A DNA stretch of 64,000 nt, from assembly GCA_019722365.1 (NCBI GenBank), contig JADFUC010001597.1, positions 22,768 to 86,767 of the forward strand. The letters run 5' to 3'. Position 1 is the first letter of the stretch. Every line of letters begins with the position of its first letter. The notes under the pieces were generated by a model. The model saw nothing but the letters and a program-made list of their open reading frames with translations. It searched no databases and was not told the origin of the DNA. The position numbers and the translations under genes were made by a program. The stretch is from Lithospermum erythrorhizon (taxonomy: Eukaryota > Streptophyta > Magnoliopsida > Boraginales > Boraginaceae). Below are positions 3,741 through 54,165 of this stretch, one piece after another.

Positions 3741-4757
3741 TCAGGCTTGAGGCTCAATTACCCTATTCGCTGCAATAATTTCTTGACCAGCTTTCTTGAG
3801 AAGATTATTACTTTGTTTCGGTTGGAACTGATGCAGTGGCTTATTAGTTTTATCAAGTGTGTGCAGGAGCACCGCAGTGATCACCGACGAAGCAAACATG
3901 GGGATTGGACCAAACACCCAGAACAAGAATGTTGCAGCGAAATGTAGTGCTCGTACTCCAATTGCCCAGAAGGTACTCCCCTGTATTACTGGCTTCTGGA
4001 TTATCTCTACAGGTATATTTACATCTGGCATGCTTATGAGGAAACAGGCATGGACGTAACATCTGGCAGAATGGAAAAATGAAGCGAAGGCCGCAATCAA
4101 GCAGGCAAGCAGACAAACGTACTTGAGGGATATAATGGATTCACTGGTGTCTCCATAAATCATACTGCTTTTGAATATGTTTCTTGAGTTGCTACCAACC
4201 CATGCTCCAATTAAAGAAGACAGAACTATGCAGATTGATGATAAAGTAGTCGCTGCTGACAGATTTGAGGAGATCACAGATACCGCTATTGATCGGTCCA
4301 CGGCTTGAATCTACCAAAATTAAAGAGATTTGCCAAGAAGAATTTTTTAGTTCATGCTACATTACAGATAACCTACTTTGAAAATTGAAAACACTCTCCC
4401 TATTTTCACAGGGGTAAGGTTGCGTATTCTGGGATTAAAAAAGCTACTTTGCTTTTAGGTGGGAACTTTCTTGGAGACGTTGGAACAGGCTTTAATGTTG
4501 GTGAGAAGTCAAATTTGACATTAGGATAAGTGGAATGAGTAATAAAAAGGATGTAGATGATTTTGTTTTGTTGGATTTCTTACCTTTAGCATTCTCTCAA
4601 CCCAGACTCGCTTACAGTGGTTCTCATGACCAATGACTGTACGATATTCATATCTTTTGTATCTATATAGAAGGAAAAGGTGATAACCAAACATAACAAA
4701 CAAACTTGCTGGAACTAAAATAACATCCAAATGCTCCTTCCTCCATGTCACCTTCAT
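3741..4757 (-). CDS. DUF599 family membrane protein (two exons)
   Basis: Intact host gene. Exon 1 is complement 4584-4757 (58 codons), the intron complement 4311-4583 (273 bp) and exon 2 complement 3741-4310 (189 codons plus stop), for 247 residues. The donor is AAAG then GTAAG, the acceptor GGTAG then ATT, phase 0. The joined protein is of plant DUF599 (Pfam PF04654) length. It has a first membrane helix at about residues 11-31 (VILVPASLFVMFGYHLFLLY), the conserved TVIG-(H/Y)-EN and RVWVE region, a second helix about 70-97 ending LSSLIGAWVGS, the YGDTSESIISLKY segment, and two or three further helices including LFWVFGPIPMF. Biochemical function is unknown for the family. The predicted topology is about five membrane spans. 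Both exons are free of stops, so the gene looks functional. The start is the only Met before the first helix in exon 1. A neighbouring MITE lies in the 3-prime flank. Confidence 0.9.
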
Positions 4758-4892: not shown

Positions 4893-5063
4893 AAGTGAAT
4901 AGTATGATTAAGGTGCCATGGAATATGAATTCTTAAATATAGTTTCAAATAAAAGCAAGCCTGTGAAGAAGCTGCCTTTACATGGAAAGTGATGCTTTTG
5001 CATGTACTAGTTGTGTACAAGAAAATTATACACATAGCCATCTGTCATTATGTCATCTTTTAA

Positions 5064-15940: not shown

Positions 15941-16133
15941 AAAGTGGATGATACGATATCCAATGGGTTAATAGGTTGGTGACACCTGACTCAATACTTT
16001 ATTAGTAATATTTACTCTAGTCGTTTTAATTATGAATTTATGTATTATTTATTTGTAATACTCAATATCTATATTCGTAATTTACAATATTGTGTACTCT
16101 TCATCGCTAATTTAAAAAAAAAGTGGATGATAC
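15941..16133 (+). mobile_element. Short retroposon with poly(A) tail and 14-bp target duplication
   Basis: AAAGTGGATGATAC occurs at 15941-15954 and again at 16120-16133. The second copy is preceded by a run of nine or more A. The about 165-bp body between them is AT-rich and noncoding. A poly(A) tail plus a 13-15 bp direct repeat is the signature of target-primed reverse transcription by LINE machinery. The body could be a 5-prime-truncated LINE tail or a SINE; no clear polymerase III boxes are seen. Confidence 0.7.
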
Positions 16134-16139
16134 AATAAA

Positions 16140-16369
16140 GGGCGAATGGCTCCAGATATCACTCACGTTCGATAAAATTCGTAATTCGATCACTCTAGTT
16201 CCATTAAGACTGTTTTTTATCACTAAAGTTCTTTATAGGGTGCAAAATTGGTAATTGATCTTTTTTACAATTTTTCACAATTTTTTCGAGTACATTTTTA
16301 TCTTTTAATTATTTATATGTATAAATCAAGACCCATTGATATTATCCTCCCAAACCATCCCACCTCAAT
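16140..16369 (+). repeat. Left terminal inverted repeat of the Pack-MULE
   Basis: Pairs with the complement of 17098-17336 over its outer 50 bp and again strongly over the inner about 100 bp, with small indels between. Confidence 0.88.
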
Positions 16370-16452
16370 CGCTTGCTACTGCAACCAATTCATTGCCTTC
16401 ATCCCATCCTCAAACGCAGCAGGATACCTACTCTCGGAAGCCAATCTATACC
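16370..16452 (-). pseudogene. Captured carboxylesterase second-exon fragment
   Basis: The minus strand reads GYRLASESRYPAAFEDGMK then AMNWLQ, a stop, and QA. GYRLAPE-x-RYPAAFEDG is the conserved strand-helix after the oxyanion hole in the same CXE group. It is preceded on the minus strand by TTTATTGCTTTGTAG, a good splice acceptor, so the capture was from genomic DNA with its intron (16453-16815). One in-frame TAG interrupts it, and it ends where the terminal repeat begins. Confidence 0.8.
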
Positions 16453-16815
16453 CTACAAAGCAATAAAATCACAATAAACGAATAACAAAATCCCATACAA
16501 AGGGTTTATGCATCAAGTAAGAAAGGATTGAAGCTTTTCGGTTAGACCAACAACATTTCCAAAAGCAGAAAATATTTTTCAAATTCAAAATACCAACTTT
16601 CAGTCACAGTCAACAAAAATATTGAAAAGGGTCTACAAAACAAATATCATGGGGTGTTACAAGTTCAAGAACATTTCCAAAACCAGAAGTCCTTGAAAAT
16701 TAAACAAACAAACCAAAAAGATTTAAACTTTCGTGTGATTTGTACATAAAAAGATGATTTTATACTTCTATGTGACATGATTTTTCGTATTTGAATATCT
16801 AAATCCCATCATTCA

Positions 16816-17016
16816 CATATTCACAAGACCACCATTCTTCTCCAATTTACCCAAATCCCCATTTTTCATAAAGCGCAAGTCTTTATTAACAACCGAATCA
16901 AGGAGGAAAATTCGAAGCGATAACAAAGTCAACGGATCAATATGGAGGTCTTTTGTAGTAACACCATCTTCAGCAAAACTAGGATTTGATGCCGCAATAT
17001 TCTCACCTGGACGTGA
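16816..17016 (-). pseudogene. Captured carboxylesterase (CXE11/CXE16-like) first-exon fragment
   Basis: The minus strand is open for 67 codons and reads SRPGENIAASNPSFAEDGV, TTKDLHIDPLTLLSLRIFLL and onwards to a stop at 16813. The order SRP-E-(I/V)-AA-NP-F-DGV-(A/T)-TKD-(I/L)-HIDP-LT-LS-(L/V)-RIFL matches the amino-terminal part of plant alpha/beta-hydrolase carboxylesterases of the CXE11/CXE16 type. The HGGG oxyanion-hole segment that should follow is absent. At its upstream edge the homology stops exactly at 17016, four bases from the ATPase fragment. It cannot encode an esterase. Confidence 0.82.
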
Positions 17017-17020
17017 TTAA

Positions 17021-17092
17021 GGAGTGAGACCAATGGCTGGGATTTTGCTTCATGGTCCACCAGGGTGTGGGAAGACCAAACTTATCAAATGA
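17021..17092 (+). pseudogene. Captured AAA-ATPase (CDC48C/NVL-like) Walker A fragment
   Basis: The plus strand reads GVRPMAGILLHGPPGCGKTK then LIK and a stop. LGVRPM-GILLHGPPGCGKTKLA is the Walker A region of the first ATPase domain in plant CDC48-homologue C / NVL-type proteins, nuclear factors of ribosome maturation. Only 23 codons remain and Walker B is missing. The nucleotide-binding GPPGCGKT is intact but without context. It lies on the opposite strand to the esterase pieces. Confidence 0.8.
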
Positions 17093-17097
17093 ATTAG

Positions 17098-17336
17098 TGG
17101 GTGAGTGGGATTGGTTTGGAAAGATAATGAATGGGAAAAAGGGAGTGATTTATACTATAAATAATAAAAAGATAAAAATGTCTGGAATAAATATGAAAAA
17201 ATGTAAAAAATTAATTTAATCTGTCCTTTACTTAAATGATCGATTTTTGCGTTAGCTTGATTGTCAGCTTGATGCTAAGCAAAACTAGATGATGGAATTT
17301 TGCGAATTTTATGATAGCAGGAGAGCCATTAAGCCC
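17098..17336 (-). repeat. Right terminal inverted repeat of the Pack-MULE
   Basis: Complement of the left repeat. The inner boundary, at GGGTGAGTGGGATTGG, abuts the end of the captured ATPase fragment. Confidence 0.88.
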
Positions 17337-17345
17337 TACAATAAA

Positions 17346-18674: not shown

Positions 18675-18774
18675 TTTTACCGGCCATGCTCAAAACCCAA
18701 CCCTACTCGCGCCAGCATGGAATGTTTTACCGGCTATTCTTAAAACCCAACCCTAGTTGCTCCAGCATGGTATG
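18675..18774. repeat. 50-bp tandem duplication across the stop codon of the 795-residue gene
   Basis: 18675-18724 and 18725-18774 are consecutive 50-bp units, both starting TTTTACCGGC and containing AAAACCCAACCCTA and CCAGCATGG. On the minus strand the inner unit encodes YHAGATRVGF then stop. The outer unit, past the stop, could encode FHAGASRVGFEHGR. Confidence 0.9.
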
Positions 18775-21127
18775 CGGCTCGTCGCAATGGTTCCAACTTC
18801 CTCTTAGTCCAGAAACAACCGTCTTGAGCCGAAGCTAACTTCCCAGCTGTCCTCATTGGCTCAGACTTGCACCTTGTCAACACAAACGGCTCATATCCTA
18901 CAGCATTCACTAGCTTCTGTTCGATCATAGTTGCCATTGATACAGCTGCCACCGGATATGAACAAGATGATCTAGGCGGCAATAATGCCGTCTGTGGCTC
19001 TTGTGGTGGCGCTGCTGCCACAGCCGCCTGCTTGGCTTGATGGGCTGACTGAGATTTTTTGTTTAAAGAACTCTTCGAATCAGTACTATTCCTTTTCTTG
19101 ACTTCATCAGAATTGGCCACATTGGGGTCATCATTCTTTGCCACTGTAGCTGGTAGTGGCTGCTTCACATGCTTATGCCTTTGTGGTAGCCATCTACTGA
19201 AATCTCTGCTGCAAACCCATGTTTCTTTGGATACTTCCATGGATAATTTAGGTTCATACATCATTAAAAGTAAGCAATCTGGCAAAACTGAAGACTTTGG
19301 TGATGATGAAACTAAAGATGATAGCTTTTCAACAGCCTCATCATTATCTTCTATCATAAATTGATCTCTCCTCTCAAAAACCTCTTCTTCATTTTCGGTT
19401 TCTTTCTCAATTTTCAGCTCAGAAGTCTTCATTTCTTGATCTTTGACCTCTTCATTTTCATGGGTATTTCCAAAATCTTCAGTTTGATTTTCCAATTGAG
19501 GCTCAGTGTTAAAGGTGGAGTCTTTCTCACTGGTTGACTCTGTTTCTGCTTCAGCAGCTTCTTCCTCTGTTTCAACCTCTTCTCTTTCACCATCTTCTTG
19601 ATTAATTGCTGATGTAAAAGATCCACAGCTCATTCTACAACCCTCTTCTTCTTTCTCTACAATCTGATTGCGATCTTCAATTTCACTATTCTTGATATTA
19701 GCTTCTTGTTCTAGCAACACACAATTTACCAATTCTGTTTCTTGCACACTGATATCTTCATTTTCAATGTTCCTGATATGAGCTTCAAGTGCCTCCATGA
19801 AGATTAATTCTTCCTCTTTCTCTAACAACAAATCTCCTTCACTCATATTAACCTCTGCTTCTTGCTTCAAATCCTCTTCTTCTTCCTTCCCTTCATCTTG
19901 AACTTGCATTGGCAAATCCAAAACCTCTTCTACCTCGATTGAATCTAGATTTTGAATTTCCAGCACCATTTCCTTCACCTCCTCTGCAGCTTCACATTTG
20001 TCTACAACCACTTCAATTTCCTTGACAACTTCTTCTCCAAAGATGCGTCTTTTACCATCAAATAGCTCCCCTTTTTCTTGTTCTTCTTCGTCTTCGACTT
20101 GTGGTGGAGGAGCTTCCCATACCTTAGTAGTAAGAGAAGCCATCTTCATAGGATCAGATCTACACCTCATCAACAATAGAGCATTCTTGGGTGGTATACA
20201 AATGCTCACTCTACCCTCTTCTTCAACTCTTCCACCCTTTCCATCAAATATCTCATCACTAATCTTGAAATCTTCCAAAGCATGTCTTCTTGAACTCCTC
20301 AACTCAACATCATCTTCACTCTCCTCCTCATCTCCACCAACAACAAGCTCAATCTCCCTCTCTTTCCCTCCTTCCTGATCTTGCAATGTCACAAGCCATC
20401 TAGCAAAACATGAATCACCATTATTATTCTTCTTCTCTTCTTTACCCCTTTCACTAGTGGAAAAACATGAAGAGCTACAAGGAAACAAGCAGCTAAACTC
20501 AGCTCCAAAATCCCGCAAAGCTTCACATATAGTTAAAGGCAAATGAACCCATCTCTGATTCCTATGAGGCAAACAATCTTGCTGATGAGTAGATGAATTA
20601 GCTCTAGTATAATGACTACTAACATTTCCAAGAATACCCTTTTCATTATCAAGACTGAATCTTTCACCGCCACCACTTCCTTGATCTGTCAGCCTCCTTG
20701 AACTACCATCTCCACCACTCCGCCGCCTCGAAAGGGTCCGTGTTTGTTTAGCTTTTTTCTTAGTCTTGACACGTACTTGCCCAATGCAGGTGACTTTAGG
20801 TGAAGATGGTTCAGGATTGTCAAAGCCACAACCCCTTTTCTTGGCTCCATTAGTTGAATTGGTGAAGATTGGAGAAGCTTGTCCACCTTTGAGACTTCCA
20901 TTGCTTTTGAGGCGGCGGCTTAGAGAAGAAGAGAGGGACATGGGTTGATCTCTACACCTTCCAGGGCTCAGAATTGATTTGGAGATTTTCATTGAAGATG
21001 AATTAGAAGATAAGGCTGAAGTGAAGCATATGAAGAGTTCACTACTATTACTATTATTATTGTTTGTGGTTTGGTGATGATAATGGGGTCTGGTGTGACT
21101 ATTGTCCATCTTTTTCTTTGGGGTCAA
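18740..21127 (-). CDS. Acidic plant-specific protein of unknown function, 795 residues
   Basis: Single-exon intact gene. The amino end is Ser/Asn-rich (1-50), then MKISKSILSPGRCRD (46-60), a basic zone with the conserved SPKVTCIGQVRVKTKKK (109-125), KQTRTLSRRRS, and WVHLPLTICEALRDFGAEFSC (193-213). Next come an acidic block and the short motif LLLMRCRSDPMKMASL (317-332), then a long Glu-rich, probably coiled-coil or disordered stretch (about 340-620). The carboxyl part has SKETWVCSRDFSRWLPQR and a second motif VLTRCKSEPMRTAGKL (749-764). The SPKVTCIGQ and RCxS(D/E)PM motifs define a conserved land-plant family without known activity, sometimes labelled protamine-P1-like. The basic patches suggest a nuclear role, but that is a guess. 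The first ATG is used; Met46 is an alternative start where conservation begins. The stop lies in a 50-bp tandem duplication. Confidence 0.85.
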   Translation of the reverse strand: MTPKKKMDNSHTRPHYHHQTTNNNNSNSSELFICFTSALSSNSSSMKISKSILSPGRCRDQPMSLSSSLSRRLKSNGSLKGGQASPIFTNSTNGAKKRGCGFDNPEPSSPKVTCIGQVRVKTKKKAKQTRTLSRRRSGGDGSSRRLTDQGSGGGERFSLDNEKGILGNVSSHYTRANSSTHQQDCLPHRNQRWVHLPLTICEALRDFGAEFSCLFPCSSSCFSTSERGKEEKKNNNGDSCFARWLVTLQDQEGGKEREIELVVGGDEEESEDDVELRSSRRHALEDFKISDEIFDGKGGRVEEEGRVSICIPPKNALLLMRCRSDPMKMASLTTKVWEAPPPQVEDEEEQEKGELFDGKRRIFGEEVVKEIEVVVDKCEAAEEVKEMVLEIQNLDSIEVEEVLDLPMQVQDEGKEEEEDLKQEAEVNMSEGDLLLEKEEELIFMEALEAHIRNIENEDISVQETELVNCVLLEQEANIKNSEIEDRNQIVEKEEEGCRMSCGSFTSAINQEDGEREEVETEEEAAEAETESTSEKDSTFNTEPQLENQTEDFGNTHENEEVKDQEMKTSELKIEKETENEEEVFERRDQFMIEDNDEAVEKLSSLVSSSPKSSVLPDCLLLMMYEPKLSMEVSKETWVCSRDFSRWLPQRHKHVKQPLPATVAKNDDPNVANSDEVKKRNSTDSKSSLNKKSQSAHQAKQAAVAAAPPQEPQTALLPPRSSCSYPVAAVSMATMIEQKLVNAVGYEPFVLTRCKSEPMRTAGKLASAQDGCFWTKRKLEPLRRAAYHAGATRVGF

Positions 21128-21260
21128 ATGTTTTTTACTGCTTTGATTTAGCCAAAGAGGCTGTTAAATTGGGACAGGGATGAGGGAGGGGGGGTGGCGA
21201 GGGGGTGTTTTGGCATAAAGCTGTGAAATTATATGGTGGGATTGCAGGTATACCACATGG
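21128..21260 (-). promoter_or_regulatory. Pyrimidine-rich leader/core promoter zone of the 795-residue gene
   Basis: On the minus strand this zone is C/T-rich (CCCCCTCGCCACCCCCCCTC near 21186-21205), like the Y-patch of plant core promoters and leaders. No convincing TATA box could be placed; ATATAATTTC at about 21223-21232 is a weak candidate. Confidence 0.3.
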
Positions 21261-49981: not shown

Positions 49982-50040
49982 AGGAGGCAAACGGCTACTC
50001 CCGCCACAAGTACACCCCAACCAAAACTAACATCACCAAA
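49982..50040 (-). pseudogene. Partial duplicate of the microprotein membrane segment
   Basis: The minus strand reads AFLVMLVLVGVYLWRE and stops. It is a near copy, 142 bp away, of AILVMLVLIGVYLWWD in the 59-residue frame at 50080-50259. It has no start codon of its own context. Confidence 0.6.
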
Positions 50041-50079
50041 AATGCTCGATTTTGCCTACTCTCTTTCCATAATCTTTGC

Positions 50080-50259
50080 CTACTCTCTTTCCTCTAACTC
50101 AACATCAACGTCGTCACCTTTTTTTCTCGATTTCTTATCCCACCACAAGTACACCCCAATCAAAACCAACATCACCAAAATTGCTGGACCAGTACCACTT
50201 AGTCCAAAAACCAAAGCTGCTAGATTTTTAATCAGTATGGTAGCAGTACTAGTAGCCAT
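50080..50259 (-). CDS. Predicted single-pass membrane microprotein, 59 residues
   Basis: The minus-strand frame begins MATSTATILIKNLAALVFGL, then SGTGPAILVMLVLIGVYLWW, and ends in a charged tail, DKKSRKKGDDVDVELEERE, then TAG. Layout: a short polar amino end, one strongly hydrophobic helix (about residues 24-40) after a Gly-rich turn, a positively charged stop-transfer KKSRKK, and an acidic end. This is a coherent type of small membrane protein. A TATATAAAG box lies 160 bp upstream. No family is recognised. It may be a real small gene or a leftover of a larger one; partial duplication at its 3-prime side argues for local rearrangement. The stop region is itself repeated (GCCTACTCTCTTTCC at 50054 and 50078). 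Confidence 0.5.
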   Translation of the reverse strand: MATSTATILIKNLAALVFGLSGTGPAILVMLVLIGVYLWWDKKSRKKGDDVDVELEERE

Positions 50260-50420
50260 TATGACCGAATGAATTTTTAATCATCCATACAAAACTATTA
50301 AGCAAATCGATTGAAGAGATTGCCTGCCATGGACGTTTCACCTACACGGGACCTTTCAAACGTTTCTCCTCAGGTCTTCATTACAACAAATGCTTTGAAT
50401 TTGAAAAGGCTCTCCTTCTC

Positions 50421-50430
50421 TTTATATACC
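50421..50430 (-). promoter_or_regulatory. TATA box upstream of the microprotein frame
   Basis: The minus strand reads GGTATATAAAGAG, a consensus plant TATA box, 160 bp before the ATG at 50259. Confidence 0.5.
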
Positions 50431-50509
50431 CACGGGAGGAAGCATGCATTTGGCCCTTCCTATCCGAGTTCTCGTTCCATTACACAGTTTCTTCTTATTC
50501 CACTTCTTT

Positions 50510-50680
50510 CAGGGCGGAGCCACGAACTAATTATAGGATGAGCCATATATAAAAGAAACATTAAGATTTAGACAAGGTGGGCCAAATAACGTAGATTTAC
50601 AAAATTTTAATGAAATATGTGACGTTTATGTATCATTTTTCTAACAAATTAAAGATAAAATTAACATTTGTAATCAAGGC
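50510..50680 (+). mobile_element. hAT-type transposon end
   Basis: CAGGGCGGAGCCACG at 50510 is close to the CAGGGGCGGAGCCA terminus common in plant hAT elements. No complementary right end was found, so this is a truncated or rearranged copy. Confidence 0.35.
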
Positions 50681-50689
50681 CGAGGCCTA

Positions 50690-51480
50690 CTTTGGCCCTT
50701 ACATAGCCCGCCCCCTCTTTCCACTCTTTCTTCGAAAGCACCTCTTCCCATAACGGCCCGTACTCAAGCCGGTATTCACGCTCTTTAGGTCCTCACCTCT
50801 CTGTAAGGCCGAGGCCTGGCCGGGGCAAAGATTGCATTCTCCTCCTCCGTCTCCTACGAGGCCCGGCTGCTCTCTCGGCCCCGGGTGGCGGCCCCAAAGG
50901 CATCGCTTACACTTCCTTCGCCCCTAGAGCAGACTGCTTACACTTCCTTTCTGCCTATCCTCGATCAGGGGGAAATGAAGAGGATCTCCTGCTGGCCTCG
51001 GCCCTAGGGCCGCTTCAAGAAGCTTTCCGGCTCGGGCCGCCAGGGAATTCGTTCTTCCCCGTTTCCATTTACCCTTATATGTTTCCTTTGCTCCATCTAA
51101 CCTTCCATTCTTCCGTCGTGATGCTTCTACTTTATGACCCTAAGTGGGATTTGCAATCGGCTCTTCACCAACAGATTTAGATTTGGACATGGAACTCGCT
51201 CCAAAGAACGTGTTTGTGTGAACACATCGGGAGAAGCAACTCTGTGAGGTCAGATTGCTGCGGGCTCCGCTAGCCATTTCCCTAGGGGAGCGGCCCCTAA
51301 ATAAGGACCCAGAAAGCCAGGAGTGAGCGACGAGTTCTTCAGTTGCCCGCGCCACTGTAGTGAGATGGATGACCTCCGACCAGCTTACAACAAGACAGCC
51401 CCTTCGCTGCCATCGTGTGGGCCGCCGTTTCCGCCGATTTTGTTCTCACTACTACGATCGGATCCCCCTAGCCTCCCGCT
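50690..51480. other. GC-rich, organelle-like segment (possible mitochondrial insertion)
   Basis: A sharp rise in G+C against the neighbouring DNA, with no retroelement domain. The word style on the minus strand (long purine-rich runs such as AAGAAAGAGTGGAAAGAGGG, GGAAATGGCTAGCGGAGC) recalls plant mitochondrial intergenic or ORF DNA. A 71-codon minus frame (51355-51140) starts MARATEELVAHSWLSGSLF. No mitochondrial gene is identified, so this is a suggestion only. Confidence 0.3.
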
Positions 51481-51539
51481 CTAGCGGAGTATTATGTGAG
51501 GCAAGCACTCCACTCGGTGGCCGGACACCAACCCCTTCT

Positions 51540-51900
51540 TCCCATTTATGCGATCGTCCCTATCCCTAGGCCTTAGATTTTTCCTTTTGTACTTTTCAAT
51601 TTTTGTAAACTTTTGTGTTCCCCTAGTGGAAGAATAAAAGTTTTTTCTTGATTTTACTGTCTTGTTCCATTTCCTTGTTCCTTTCTGCGTGCTTTTAGTT
51701 ATACTTTGTATTTTCGTACATACCTCTGCTCTCGCCTGGCTCATCGACCTTTTTGGTCGAGGATCTCAGCCATGGCGGCTGTGGGTTCTACCTAGAGTTT
51801 TGTATCCTTGTTTTTTCCTTTCCATGGGTCCTTTCCCATGCTTATATACCTTGAAAATTCGGATCCTACACAAGGTGGCGGATTGTACATAGGATAGCTC
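51540..51900 (+). repeat. LTR-like segment with polyadenylation context
   Basis: TTTTGTACTTTTCAATTTTTG followed by CCCTAGTGGAAGAATAAAAG resembles the R/U5 part of Tat-type gypsy LTRs on the plus strand. It lies next to the minus-strand Tat integrase relic but in the other orientation. Ends are not defined. Confidence 0.35.
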
Positions 51901-52133
51901 CCTCTACCCAGGGTCTCCTACTTGTTCAATACAAGAGGATTCAGTCCTCTGATTAGTCAGGTAGTAGAATATAATCAATATTAGATAGATTTTATCAATC
52001 CACTTTAAGGTCTACTCTCGGCAGCCTAGCTCAATTAATTTTCTAATCCATATAGAACTTTAATGGCACAAATAGTTTTAATCAATCAAGTCTTTAATTC
52101 TGAAATAATAAGAGAGGGCTTACACATAGTATT

Positions 52134-53943
52134 TTGAGTATAAGTGTTGGCCCCACAACCTCGCACTCGATTCTTCAAGGGTCGCTACCATACGTGACTG
52201 GTCCCACTATCCTCCGGATGATGTACGATCCCTCCCAAGGAGACTCCAACTTTCTGAGTTTTCCACGAGCGGATGCTTGTCTTGCTTTCAGGACTAGGTC
52301 ACCCACAAGGAAATTGCCTTGCACTGCACCTTCTTGTCAGAAAAGAATTATCTTTTTCTTGTATTTGGCTATTTTATCCATTACGGCATGTCTTTTCTCT
52401 TCCAACAAGTCTAGGTTGAGTCGCAAGCCCTGCTCATTAGCTAGCTCATCATAATATGTCACTCGAGCCATTTCCGCGTGAATCTCCACTGCAATGGCAC
52501 GGAGTCAGTAATCGGCCAAGGGGTTTTTTCGCGATCGGATTCGGGGTTGTCTGGAACGACTATAACACTGTCGGAAGCTCCTGATCCCAACTACCTCCCT
52601 CCTGTTGCAACCTTTTCTTCATGCCCTTGAAGGTTACCCGATTCATCACTTCTACTTAGTCATTTGCTTCGCGATAGACATCGAGGTCGTCTCGTGATAT
52701 ATCCACCTCCTCCGTACGTAACACTTCCACTTGGCCATTCGCTTGTGAATTAGTCCTGTCCGCGACTAGTACCCGGGCACTCAGTCCCTTGTGAAGATTT
52801 CTTTTATGAACTGACACCCGCTCCGATTCCCGCCTAGGGAGTAGGTTCACTCACCCATTCTGTGAAGGCAATACACGCCACTATGGCATAATCTCTGATC
52901 CAAAGTAGCTTAGGGAGATCCCCTACTATATCGACTCCACACTAGTAGAATGGGATGAGGCAGAGCATACTAACCATTTCGTGAGGAGGCAGATAGGGAA
53001 TGATTGCGTGTCTTTGGCATGAATCGCATCTCCTTACGTGGTCTCTGGAAAGATTTGTATATTGATGGCCATAATACTCCCATCTTAGATCTTCTAGGGG
53101 GTTTTGCATTGATAAGACTTTCACACATGCCCTCATGCACTTCCTCGAGCGCAACCAACCCTACTTCCCTTGTCACGCATCTGAGCAGCGGACTGAAGAT
53201 CTCGGTACAATATCCGTCCGTACTTTAATTCGATCATGTAATTTTGTTAGCCACCGTGAGGATCTCTCTCTCGGTAGGGTGCCGGTCCTCAAGAAGTCCA
53301 AGAAATCTTGATACCAAGGCTCCGGGGAACCCCCCTCACTCTCCGAAGCGTTGTTATTCATTACCTCCTTTGTCCGGAAGGCTTCATCTTCGACCTATTC
53401 GACCACCGTGGCCTCATGGAGTGTCTCAGATTCTTTGCCGAGCAAGCCGATAACTCTGTCATTGCTTCTCTAGGCACATGCTATATATGACAAGATCGGA
53501 AAAGTTTGGTGAGTTTCTAGACCCTTCTTAGGTATCCGACCAACCTTTCTCTAGTCTCATCAATTTTAAACTCGCCTTCATTACTGCCAACCAACCGAGA
53601 ATCCTTAAACGGATGCTGCTTCACCCCCAAAGACAAGGCTTCATATCAAATTTTGTTGTTCATGGCCTTGAAGGTGAACCGTAGAGCATATTCTATCTTG
53701 TTGCCCTCCGGGGACCACAACAAAGATCCTGCCAACGAAATTTCGATTACTCTCACCATTCACGAGCAACCGCACCCTTCTCGAGGCATCTATCAGGTTG
53801 ATCAACTCGTGTGCCTCCTCAACCGGCCCATGGGTGCATTCAACAACGAAGTCCGCCAATGCTTGAGCCTTGATACTCGTCCGTGGCTCGTTCCTCAAAT
53901 CAAATGCAACGAGTTCTATGACCCACTTTGTTGGTGTTTCCAA
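52134..53943 (-). pseudogene. Tat-type gypsy RNase H and integrase relic
   Basis: The minus strand starts with TKWVIELVAFDLRNEPRTSI and KAQALADFVVECT (53943-53840), the junction before the second RNase H of Tat elements. LLVNGESNRNFVG follows at about 53750. Next is the link region to the integrase (53361-53173, PEPWYQDFLDFLRTGTLP). The zinc-binding domain is in two frames (VALEEVHEGMCESLINAK; HVRRCDSCQRHA, 53154-52970), then the late core TNSQANGQVEV (about 52745). The integrase tail reads KASVRSWKTQ-like pieces down to 52134. Stops and shifts abound. It is a different copy from the element at 7-15 kb, which lacks integrase. Confidence 0.8.
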
Positions 53944-53950
53944 TATATAA

Positions 53951-54165
53951 ATAATATTCTAACAATACTGTGGATATGAATCCCATGATCACTACCAGTT
54001 GTATAAACAATAATTAAGAGACAAAAAATTATGTACCGTTCTTCGGAAATAATTATCAGAATAACTGCAGCGGAATATTGTGACGAAGACCCCACGAGCA
54101 TCCAAAATAGAATGCCTCCAAGATTATCCACACCAACGAGCAAACAAGTCCATCCGGGAGTTTTA
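53951..54165 (-). repeat. LTR segment of the minus-strand copia element (left copy)
   Basis: Matches 58493-58708 in the same orientation (AATATTCTAACAATACT, TATGTACCGTTCTTCG, GCGGAATATTGT). It lies at the 3-prime side of the minus-strand copia pol relic, as expected for its 3-prime LTR. The LTR probably continues to about 55.8 kb, which is otherwise without recognisable features. Confidence 0.7.

What the first reader, a model, noticed from the sequence alone, without database searches (positions are those of the whole stretch)
16131..17345. Textbook-clean Pack-MULE whose whole interior is captured host DNA
A perfect 9-bp direct repeat TACAATAAA flanks a 1197-bp body with about 235-bp terminal inverted repeats. 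Inside there is no filler: esterase exon piece, intron-like DNA, esterase exon piece, 4 bp, ATPase piece, then the other repeat. 9-bp duplications and long TIRs are established hallmarks of Mutator-like elements, and capture is inferred from the protein motifs. An intact target duplication suggests a fairly recent move.
Basis: partly seen in the sequence, partly recalled or inferred. Interest (0 to 1): 0.88.

Follow-up and report, generated by a model that had tools for sequence, protein, structure and literature searches.

The report
Chimeric gene-carrying Mutator-like transposon (Pack-MULE)
A short plant transposon with no transposase gene of its own carries copied pieces of three separate host genes; this is a well-known kind of element, but here each piece can be traced to a donor in the same genome, and a sister element carries a ribosomal-protein gene piece that lacks the introns.

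Summary
A perfect 9-bp duplication (16131-16139 / 17337-17345) brackets a 1197-bp body with real but degraded inverted repeats. The host genome is held (366 Mb; inferred Lithospermum erythrorhizon). The interior is a mosaic from three contigs: two pieces of one exon of a carboxylesterase-11/16-like gene (95.9%, 90.9%), the 5' flank of a gene for an uncharacterised protein (93.4%), and the P-loop of a CDC48C/NVL-like ATPase (93.9%). 32 of 1197 bp are unassigned.
Correction: the 'intron-like DNA' is not an esterase intron (the exon is uninterrupted there); it is the third donor, lying between two pieces of one exon.
The donor stretches lack the terminal repeats, which recur at about 39 other places; 6 of 10 paired relatives have perfect 8- to 11-bp target duplications. 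It is an ordinary chimeric Pack-MULE, a new member of a known kind. No autonomous partner or empty site was found, and the intact duplication does not show a recent move.
A sister element carries a ribosomal L18 piece with both introns exactly missing. That is less ordinary and unresolved, because the search for an intronless donor did not complete.

The parts
16131..16139 (.). target site duplication, left copy TACAATAAA
16140..16373 (+). left terminal inverted repeat (relatives start GGGCGAATGGCTCCAGAGATCACTC or close to it)
16369..16457 (-). carboxylesterase piece b (codes VGYRLASESRYPAAFEDGMKAMNWLQ), from the same exon as piece a; donor C1865:52078-52166 (L009 about 4579-4667), 80 of 88 aligned bases identical
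16447..16805 (-). 5' flank (leader or promoter) of a gene for an uncharacterised protein, Leryth_008301; donor C1615:942538-942892 (L010 4539-4893), 311 of 333 aligned bases identical, 4 indel events
16806..16819 (.). 14 bp unassigned between the 5'-flank piece and esterase piece a
16820..17016 (-). carboxylesterase piece a (codes ..NPSFAEDGVTTKDLHIDPLTLLSLRIFLLD..); donor C1865:51593-51789 (L009 4094-4290), 189 of 197 identical
17017..17019 (.). 3 bp unassigned between esterase and ATPase pieces (the BLAST match of the ATPase donor reaches 17017 with mismatches)
17020..17082 (+). AAA ATPase P-loop piece of CDC48C/NVL type (GVRPMAGILLHGPPGCGKTKL); donor C1989:102227-102292 (L011 4728-4793); over 17017-17082, 62 of 66 identical
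17083..17097 (.). 15 bp unassigned between ATPase piece and right repeat
17098..17336 (-). right terminal inverted repeat; no row of the genome search reaches into its outer 117 bp
17337..17345 (.). target site duplication, right copy TACAATAAA

Best explanation
A non-autonomous Mutator-like element (a Pack-MULE). Shown: terminal repeats, 9-bp target duplication, and an interior made of copies of three host loci that stay in place on other contigs. Inferred: a break inside an ancestral element was repaired by DNA synthesis that hopped between templates: ATPase exon, esterase exon, another gene's 5' flank, then back to the same esterase exon in the same orientation 288 bp further on. The patched element was then moved to its present site by a MULE transposase supplied in trans, duplicating 9 bp. 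No protein product is expected. The confidence given is for a Pack-MULE with three donors; for the one-round order of hops it is about 0.45.
For: TSD and TIRs. Donors C1865, C1615 and C1989 tile the interior; the esterase donor matches an annotated protein along both exons, the C1615 gene matches another, and the ATPase donor has open AAA exons. None of the three donor stretches matched the terminal repeats at E 0.001, so this is capture and not duplication of a TIR-flanked locus. The esterase exon is uninterrupted in the donor and in paralog C1495. The junction of 5' flank and esterase b shares GGGT between both templates (chance of 4 or more shared bases 0.024, not corrected for four junctions); esterase piece a ends inside an imperfect coding tandem repeat of the donor. 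TIR family: 53 of 64 rows, about 39 distinct places, are terminal-repeat matches elsewhere; 6 of 10 loci with paired ends carry perfect 8- to 11-bp duplications with ends shifted by at most 2 bp. The genome holds MULE transposase matches (130 places, a lower bound).
Against: No element with both this TIR and a MULE transposase was found: 30 of the 130 transposase places (about 3 kb each) gave two weak hits only (E 1.6e-4 at L029, E 0.001 at L039). One copy among the 40 of 48 candidates scored; no second copy of the left flank among the 40 of 298 scored, so no empty site seen. The arms differ from each other (36 of 208 columns, 21 indel events) more than the captures differ from their donors, and the right arm's outer part matched nothing else, so the present ends may be poor substrates. 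Four of 10 paired loci showed no perfect duplication. The one microhomology is weak; the other junctions have 3, 14 and 15 unexplained bases.
Confidence: 0.94

Rival explanations
1. Same element, two-step history: a contiguous 574-bp stretch of the esterase exon was captured first, and a later break inside it was filled with the C1615 5' flank, replacing 288 bp.
For: The two esterase pieces keep donor order and orientation; one piece ends in a tandem repeat, a plausible break site.
Against: Identities to the donors (95.9%, 90.9%, 93.4%) do not separate the steps; no intermediate copy with only the esterase was among the scored matches.
Confidence: 0.4
2. The mosaic arose elsewhere by unrelated illegitimate recombination and was captured whole as a ready-made chimera.
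For: Not excluded by the junctions; 3, 14 and 15 unexplained bases at three junctions resemble end-joining.
Against: No second copy of the mosaic among the scored genome matches.
Confidence: 0.1
3. No transposon: a chance 9-bp repeat and AT-rich pseudo-TIRs around degraded pseudogene pieces, or an assembly artefact.
For: Outer TIR halves align poorly; the 9-mer occurs five times in the window.
Against: TIR score beyond all of 1000 shuffles; the left repeat recurs in the genome, six times with perfect target duplications at the matching ends; 3 of 200,000 random pairs of places match over 9 bp.
Confidence: 0.02

Closest known systems
Pack-MULEs of rice, tomato, maize and Arabidopsis
   Same: Long TIRs, 9-11 bp TSD, captured host gene pieces. 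Tomato Pack-MULEs are commonest at 1000-1200 bp (PMC3310237, passages), and this body is 1197 bp. [quoted passage not shown]
   Different: Nothing categorical. Noteworthy: an out-and-back visit to one exon with a third gene's 5' flank in between; arms more diverged from each other than the captures are from their donors.
Pack-TIRs of animals (gap filling / FoSTeST)
   Same: Template-switch gap filling with short microhomology is the model proposed there (PMC8277862, passages).
   Different: Those are in animals; here a plant MULE with donors on three contigs.
Pack-CACTA, Pack-hAT, gene-carrying Helitrons
   Same: Also carry host gene pieces.
   Different: hAT 8-nt and CACTA 5-nt TSDs in the surveyed set (PMC8903248, passages); that Helitrons leave no TSD is recalled.

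Membership tests
Mutator-like element (MULE) | 9-11 bp target site duplication at the element ends | tested here: met
   9/9 bp; 6 of 10 paired relatives have perfect 8- to 11-bp duplications, 4 of 10 do not
Mutator-like element (MULE) | long terminal inverted repeats | tested here: met
   degraded, especially the outer halves
Mutator-like element (MULE) | ends shared with an autonomous transposase-bearing element | tested here: inconclusive
Pack-MULE | captured non-transposon host sequence whose parent copies are not MULE-associated | tested here: met
   three donor loci; no TIR match at E 0.001 in 9.5 kb of each
Pack-MULE | non-autonomous (no transposase inside) | tested here: met
   no stop-to-stop frame of 80 codons or more overlaps the element (frames); 1165 of 1197 bp are assigned to TIRs and donors
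Pack-MULE | demonstrated mobility (several copies, empty site or excision) | tested here: inconclusive
   one copy among scored candidates; no second copy of the left flank among scored candidates; no other accessions available
hAT / CACTA / Helitron carrier | 8-bp, 5-bp or no TSD respectively | tested here: not met
   9-bp TSD; the TSD lengths of hAT and CACTA from PMC8903248 passages, of Helitrons recalled

The most novel reading that the evidence does not exclude
This MULE family can also take up spliced message sequence: sister element C1827:569519-570793 (L016 1520-2794, TSD AATAAACAA) holds a 117-codon open frame, most of it ribosomal protein L18, in which both introns of the L18 genes are precisely absent, so gap repair in these elements may copy RNA or cDNA templates as well as DNA. 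The window's own element neither shows nor excludes this, because its esterase and ATPase pieces each lie within one exon.
Probability: 0.2. Interest if true: 0.7.

Novelty: new member of a known kind. Interest (0 to 1): 0.33.

Why it matters
Each captured piece has an identified parent still in the genome, so the junctions can be read base by base as a record of template switching, a mechanism whose role in plant Pack-MULEs was called 'worth exploring' in 2021 (PMC8277862, passage). The out-and-back visit to one exon is a compact test case. The sister element with a spliced ribosomal-protein piece would, if no intronless DNA donor exists, mean that RNA-derived sequence can enter a DNA transposon; at least one published animal pipeline discards intronless captures from multi-exon parents before counting (PMC8277862, passage).

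Tried and rejected
Esterase intron: rejected; the donor exon and paralog C1495 are uninterrupted there and the DNA matches C1615. Autonomous partner: TIRs of the element and of relatives against 30 of 130 transposase loci gave two weak hits. Empty site: the left flank gave 40 rows (40 of 298 candidates scored); apart from self all fall in query 405-563, window 15964-16122, an interspersed repeat. The right flank was asked once and not answered. Protein search of the esterase frame used the wrong frame and is worthless. My own Pfam scan of the C1615 gene's long frame found no family; PF27747 is the precomputed label. Literature: seven searches that could touch the topic (one search found no paper) showed no listed title or abstract start describing spliced cargo in a MULE; I read no whole paper and many MULE papers are not held, so this is weak. 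In one search none of the 10 papers listed (of 396) mentions this host.

Not obtained: genome searches for the L18 peptide (an intronless donor), for the cargo of L013, and for the right arm alone did not complete.

Full report
OBSERVATION. The 9-bp repeat TACAATAAA is at 16131-16139 and 17337-17345. The 9-mer occurs five times in the window (2.1 expected), so its position at both ends is what matters: 3 of 200,000 random pairs of places matched over 9 bp. The ends align as inverted repeats well beyond chance: strict local score 101 against 21.8 +- 3.0 (largest 37) and lenient 196 against 102 +- 7.5 (largest 132) in 1000 dinucleotide shuffles each. The strict alignment covers only the inner part; over the whole length 208 columns align with 36 differences and 21 indel events. 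The repeats are real but not clean.

HOST. The window lies in a held genome of 366,103,689 bp in 2391 contigs. The esterase donor's protein record is Leryth_018070 of Lithospermum erythrorhizon on a contig of 203,997 bp, the length of C1865; the C1615 gene's is Leryth_008301 on a contig of 1,102,050 bp, the length of C1615. I infer that the host is that species.

INTERIOR. Searching the genome with the whole element (64 match rows; 40 of 48 candidates scored) and re-aligning the donor loci gave this order on the minus strand: right TIR; ATPase piece (coding on plus); esterase piece a; 5' flank; esterase piece b; left TIR. The three donors are on three contigs; whether they are linked is not known. 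Identities on re-alignment: esterase a 189 of 197, esterase b 80 of 88, 5' flank 311 of 333 with 4 indel events, ATPase 62 of 66. The esterase donor has a 282-codon first-exon frame with Abhydrolase_3 at E 2.5e-23 and resembles proteins named carboxylesterase 11 and 16 in many plants. The ATPase donor has AAA domains; the best solved-structure matches of the 23-residue piece are Rix7, with NVL in seventh place; the name CDC48C is recalled. In the donor the two esterase pieces lie in one uninterrupted frame, 288 bp apart, and paralog C1495 is likewise uninterrupted. The DNA between them in the element is therefore not an esterase intron. It matches C1615 just upstream of the annotated start of Leryth_008301: fragment L010 4539-4893, start codon at 4925. 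Whether that stretch is transcribed leader, leader intron or promoter was not tested.

JUNCTIONS. 5' flank to esterase b: GGGT shared by both templates; 4 or more shared bases arise by chance with P 0.024 (one junction of four, uncorrected), weak support for template switching. ATPase to esterase a: 3 bp unexplained. Esterase a to 5' flank: 14 bp unexplained. ATPase to right TIR: 15 bp unexplained. Piece a ends inside an imperfect tandem repeat of the donor's coding sequence (extra matches; repeated KNGDLGKLEKNGG-like units). In total 32 of 1197 bp are unassigned with the boundaries I set.

FAMILY. Of the 64 rows, 9 are the element itself, its donors, paralog C1495 and a short match at C1767; 2 are the element's own arms matching each other; the remaining 53 are terminal-repeat matches elsewhere. 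14 of these 53 are places matched a second time by the other arm, which leaves about 39 places (my sorting). I tested 11 end pairs at 10 loci for target duplications, allowing shifts of up to 12 bp and lengths of 8-11. Six loci (L012, L013, L015, L016, L025, L026) gave perfect duplications of 8-11 bp with ends shifted by at most 2 bp; four (L018, L023, L024 with two pairings, L027) did not. No row reaches into the outer 117 bp of the right arm. PF10551 transposase matches occur at 130 places, a lower bound with 150 of 253 candidates scored; 30 of the 130, as loci of about 3 kb, were tested against terminal repeats of the element and relatives and gave two weak hits.

AGE. Captures differ from donors by 4-9% of aligned bases (K2P 0.042, 0.098, 0.069, 0.063). 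At about 3% per lineage an 18-bp pair of duplications would be intact with probability near 0.58 (my arithmetic), so the intact duplication is not evidence of a recent move. The arms differ from each other (K2P 0.197 plus 21 indel events) more than the captures differ from their donors, so they were probably unlike before capture.

FUNCTION. No stop-to-stop frame of 80 codons or more overlaps the element. No protein product is expected. Effects on the donors through small RNA are possible but untested.

SISTER ELEMENTS. L013 (C783) carries a broken gene piece with a PCC domain (PF03479 E 4.4e-07; frames). L016 (C1827:569519-570793) carries ribosomal protein L18 (PF17135 E 2.8e-54) joined to a piece of C2132 (95%). 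Three matches that are separated by introns in L18 gene C2010 are contiguous in L016, and the joins fall exactly at GT..AG boundaries of C2010. The first of the three exons is 83 of 83 identical to C2196; the other two differ from C2196 by 3 and 5 substitutions but 31 and 17 gap columns. Results against a simple RNA-uptake story: locus C1517 shares the TIR/L18 junction of L016 but is clearly more diverged, which fits badly with a very recent capture in L016; only 40 of 188 candidates were scored, so an intronless donor gene is not excluded; and the dedicated search did not complete.

PAPERS. PMC8277862, PMC13317346, PMC8903248, PMC3310237 and PMC4858842 were seen as passages only; others as search listings.

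VERDICT. A confirmed chimeric Pack-MULE with traced donors: a new member of a known kind, interest modest. The spliced cargo of its sister is the lead most worth following.

Noticed in passing
L016 1520-2794 (C1827:569519-570793): Sister element of the same TIR family carrying a 117-codon open frame, most of it ribosomal protein L18, with both introns precisely missing, joined to a piece of another locus (C2132).
   Followed up: partly
L062 180-520 (C1517): A second TIR-linked L18 piece sharing the TIR/L18 junction of L016 but more diverged; hard to square with L016's near-identity to C2196.
   Followed up: partly
window 15941-16137: Interspersed repeat (matching part about 15964-16122; 298 candidates genome-wide, 40 scored) ending in a run of A and flanked by a 17/18-bp direct repeat AAAGTGGATGATAC[G/A]ATA: looks like a SINE or truncated LINE whose right-hand duplication overlaps the Pack-MULE's left one.
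   Followed up: partly
L013 1546-2861 (C783): Another sister element carrying a broken PCC-domain gene piece.
   Followed up: partly
L060 347-1094 (C2196): L18 gene whose two later exons differ from L016 mostly by small indels while the first is identical: noisy assembly or a decayed gene.
   Followed up: no
window 50001-54000: GC content rises to 0.46 in a 0.24-0.42 background; possibly organellar or retrotransposon DNA.
   Followed up: no
window 18740-21163, minus: 807-codon open frame with no Pfam match, about 1.4 kb from the element; a 50-bp tandem repeat (18675-18774) overlaps its 3' end.
   Followed up: no
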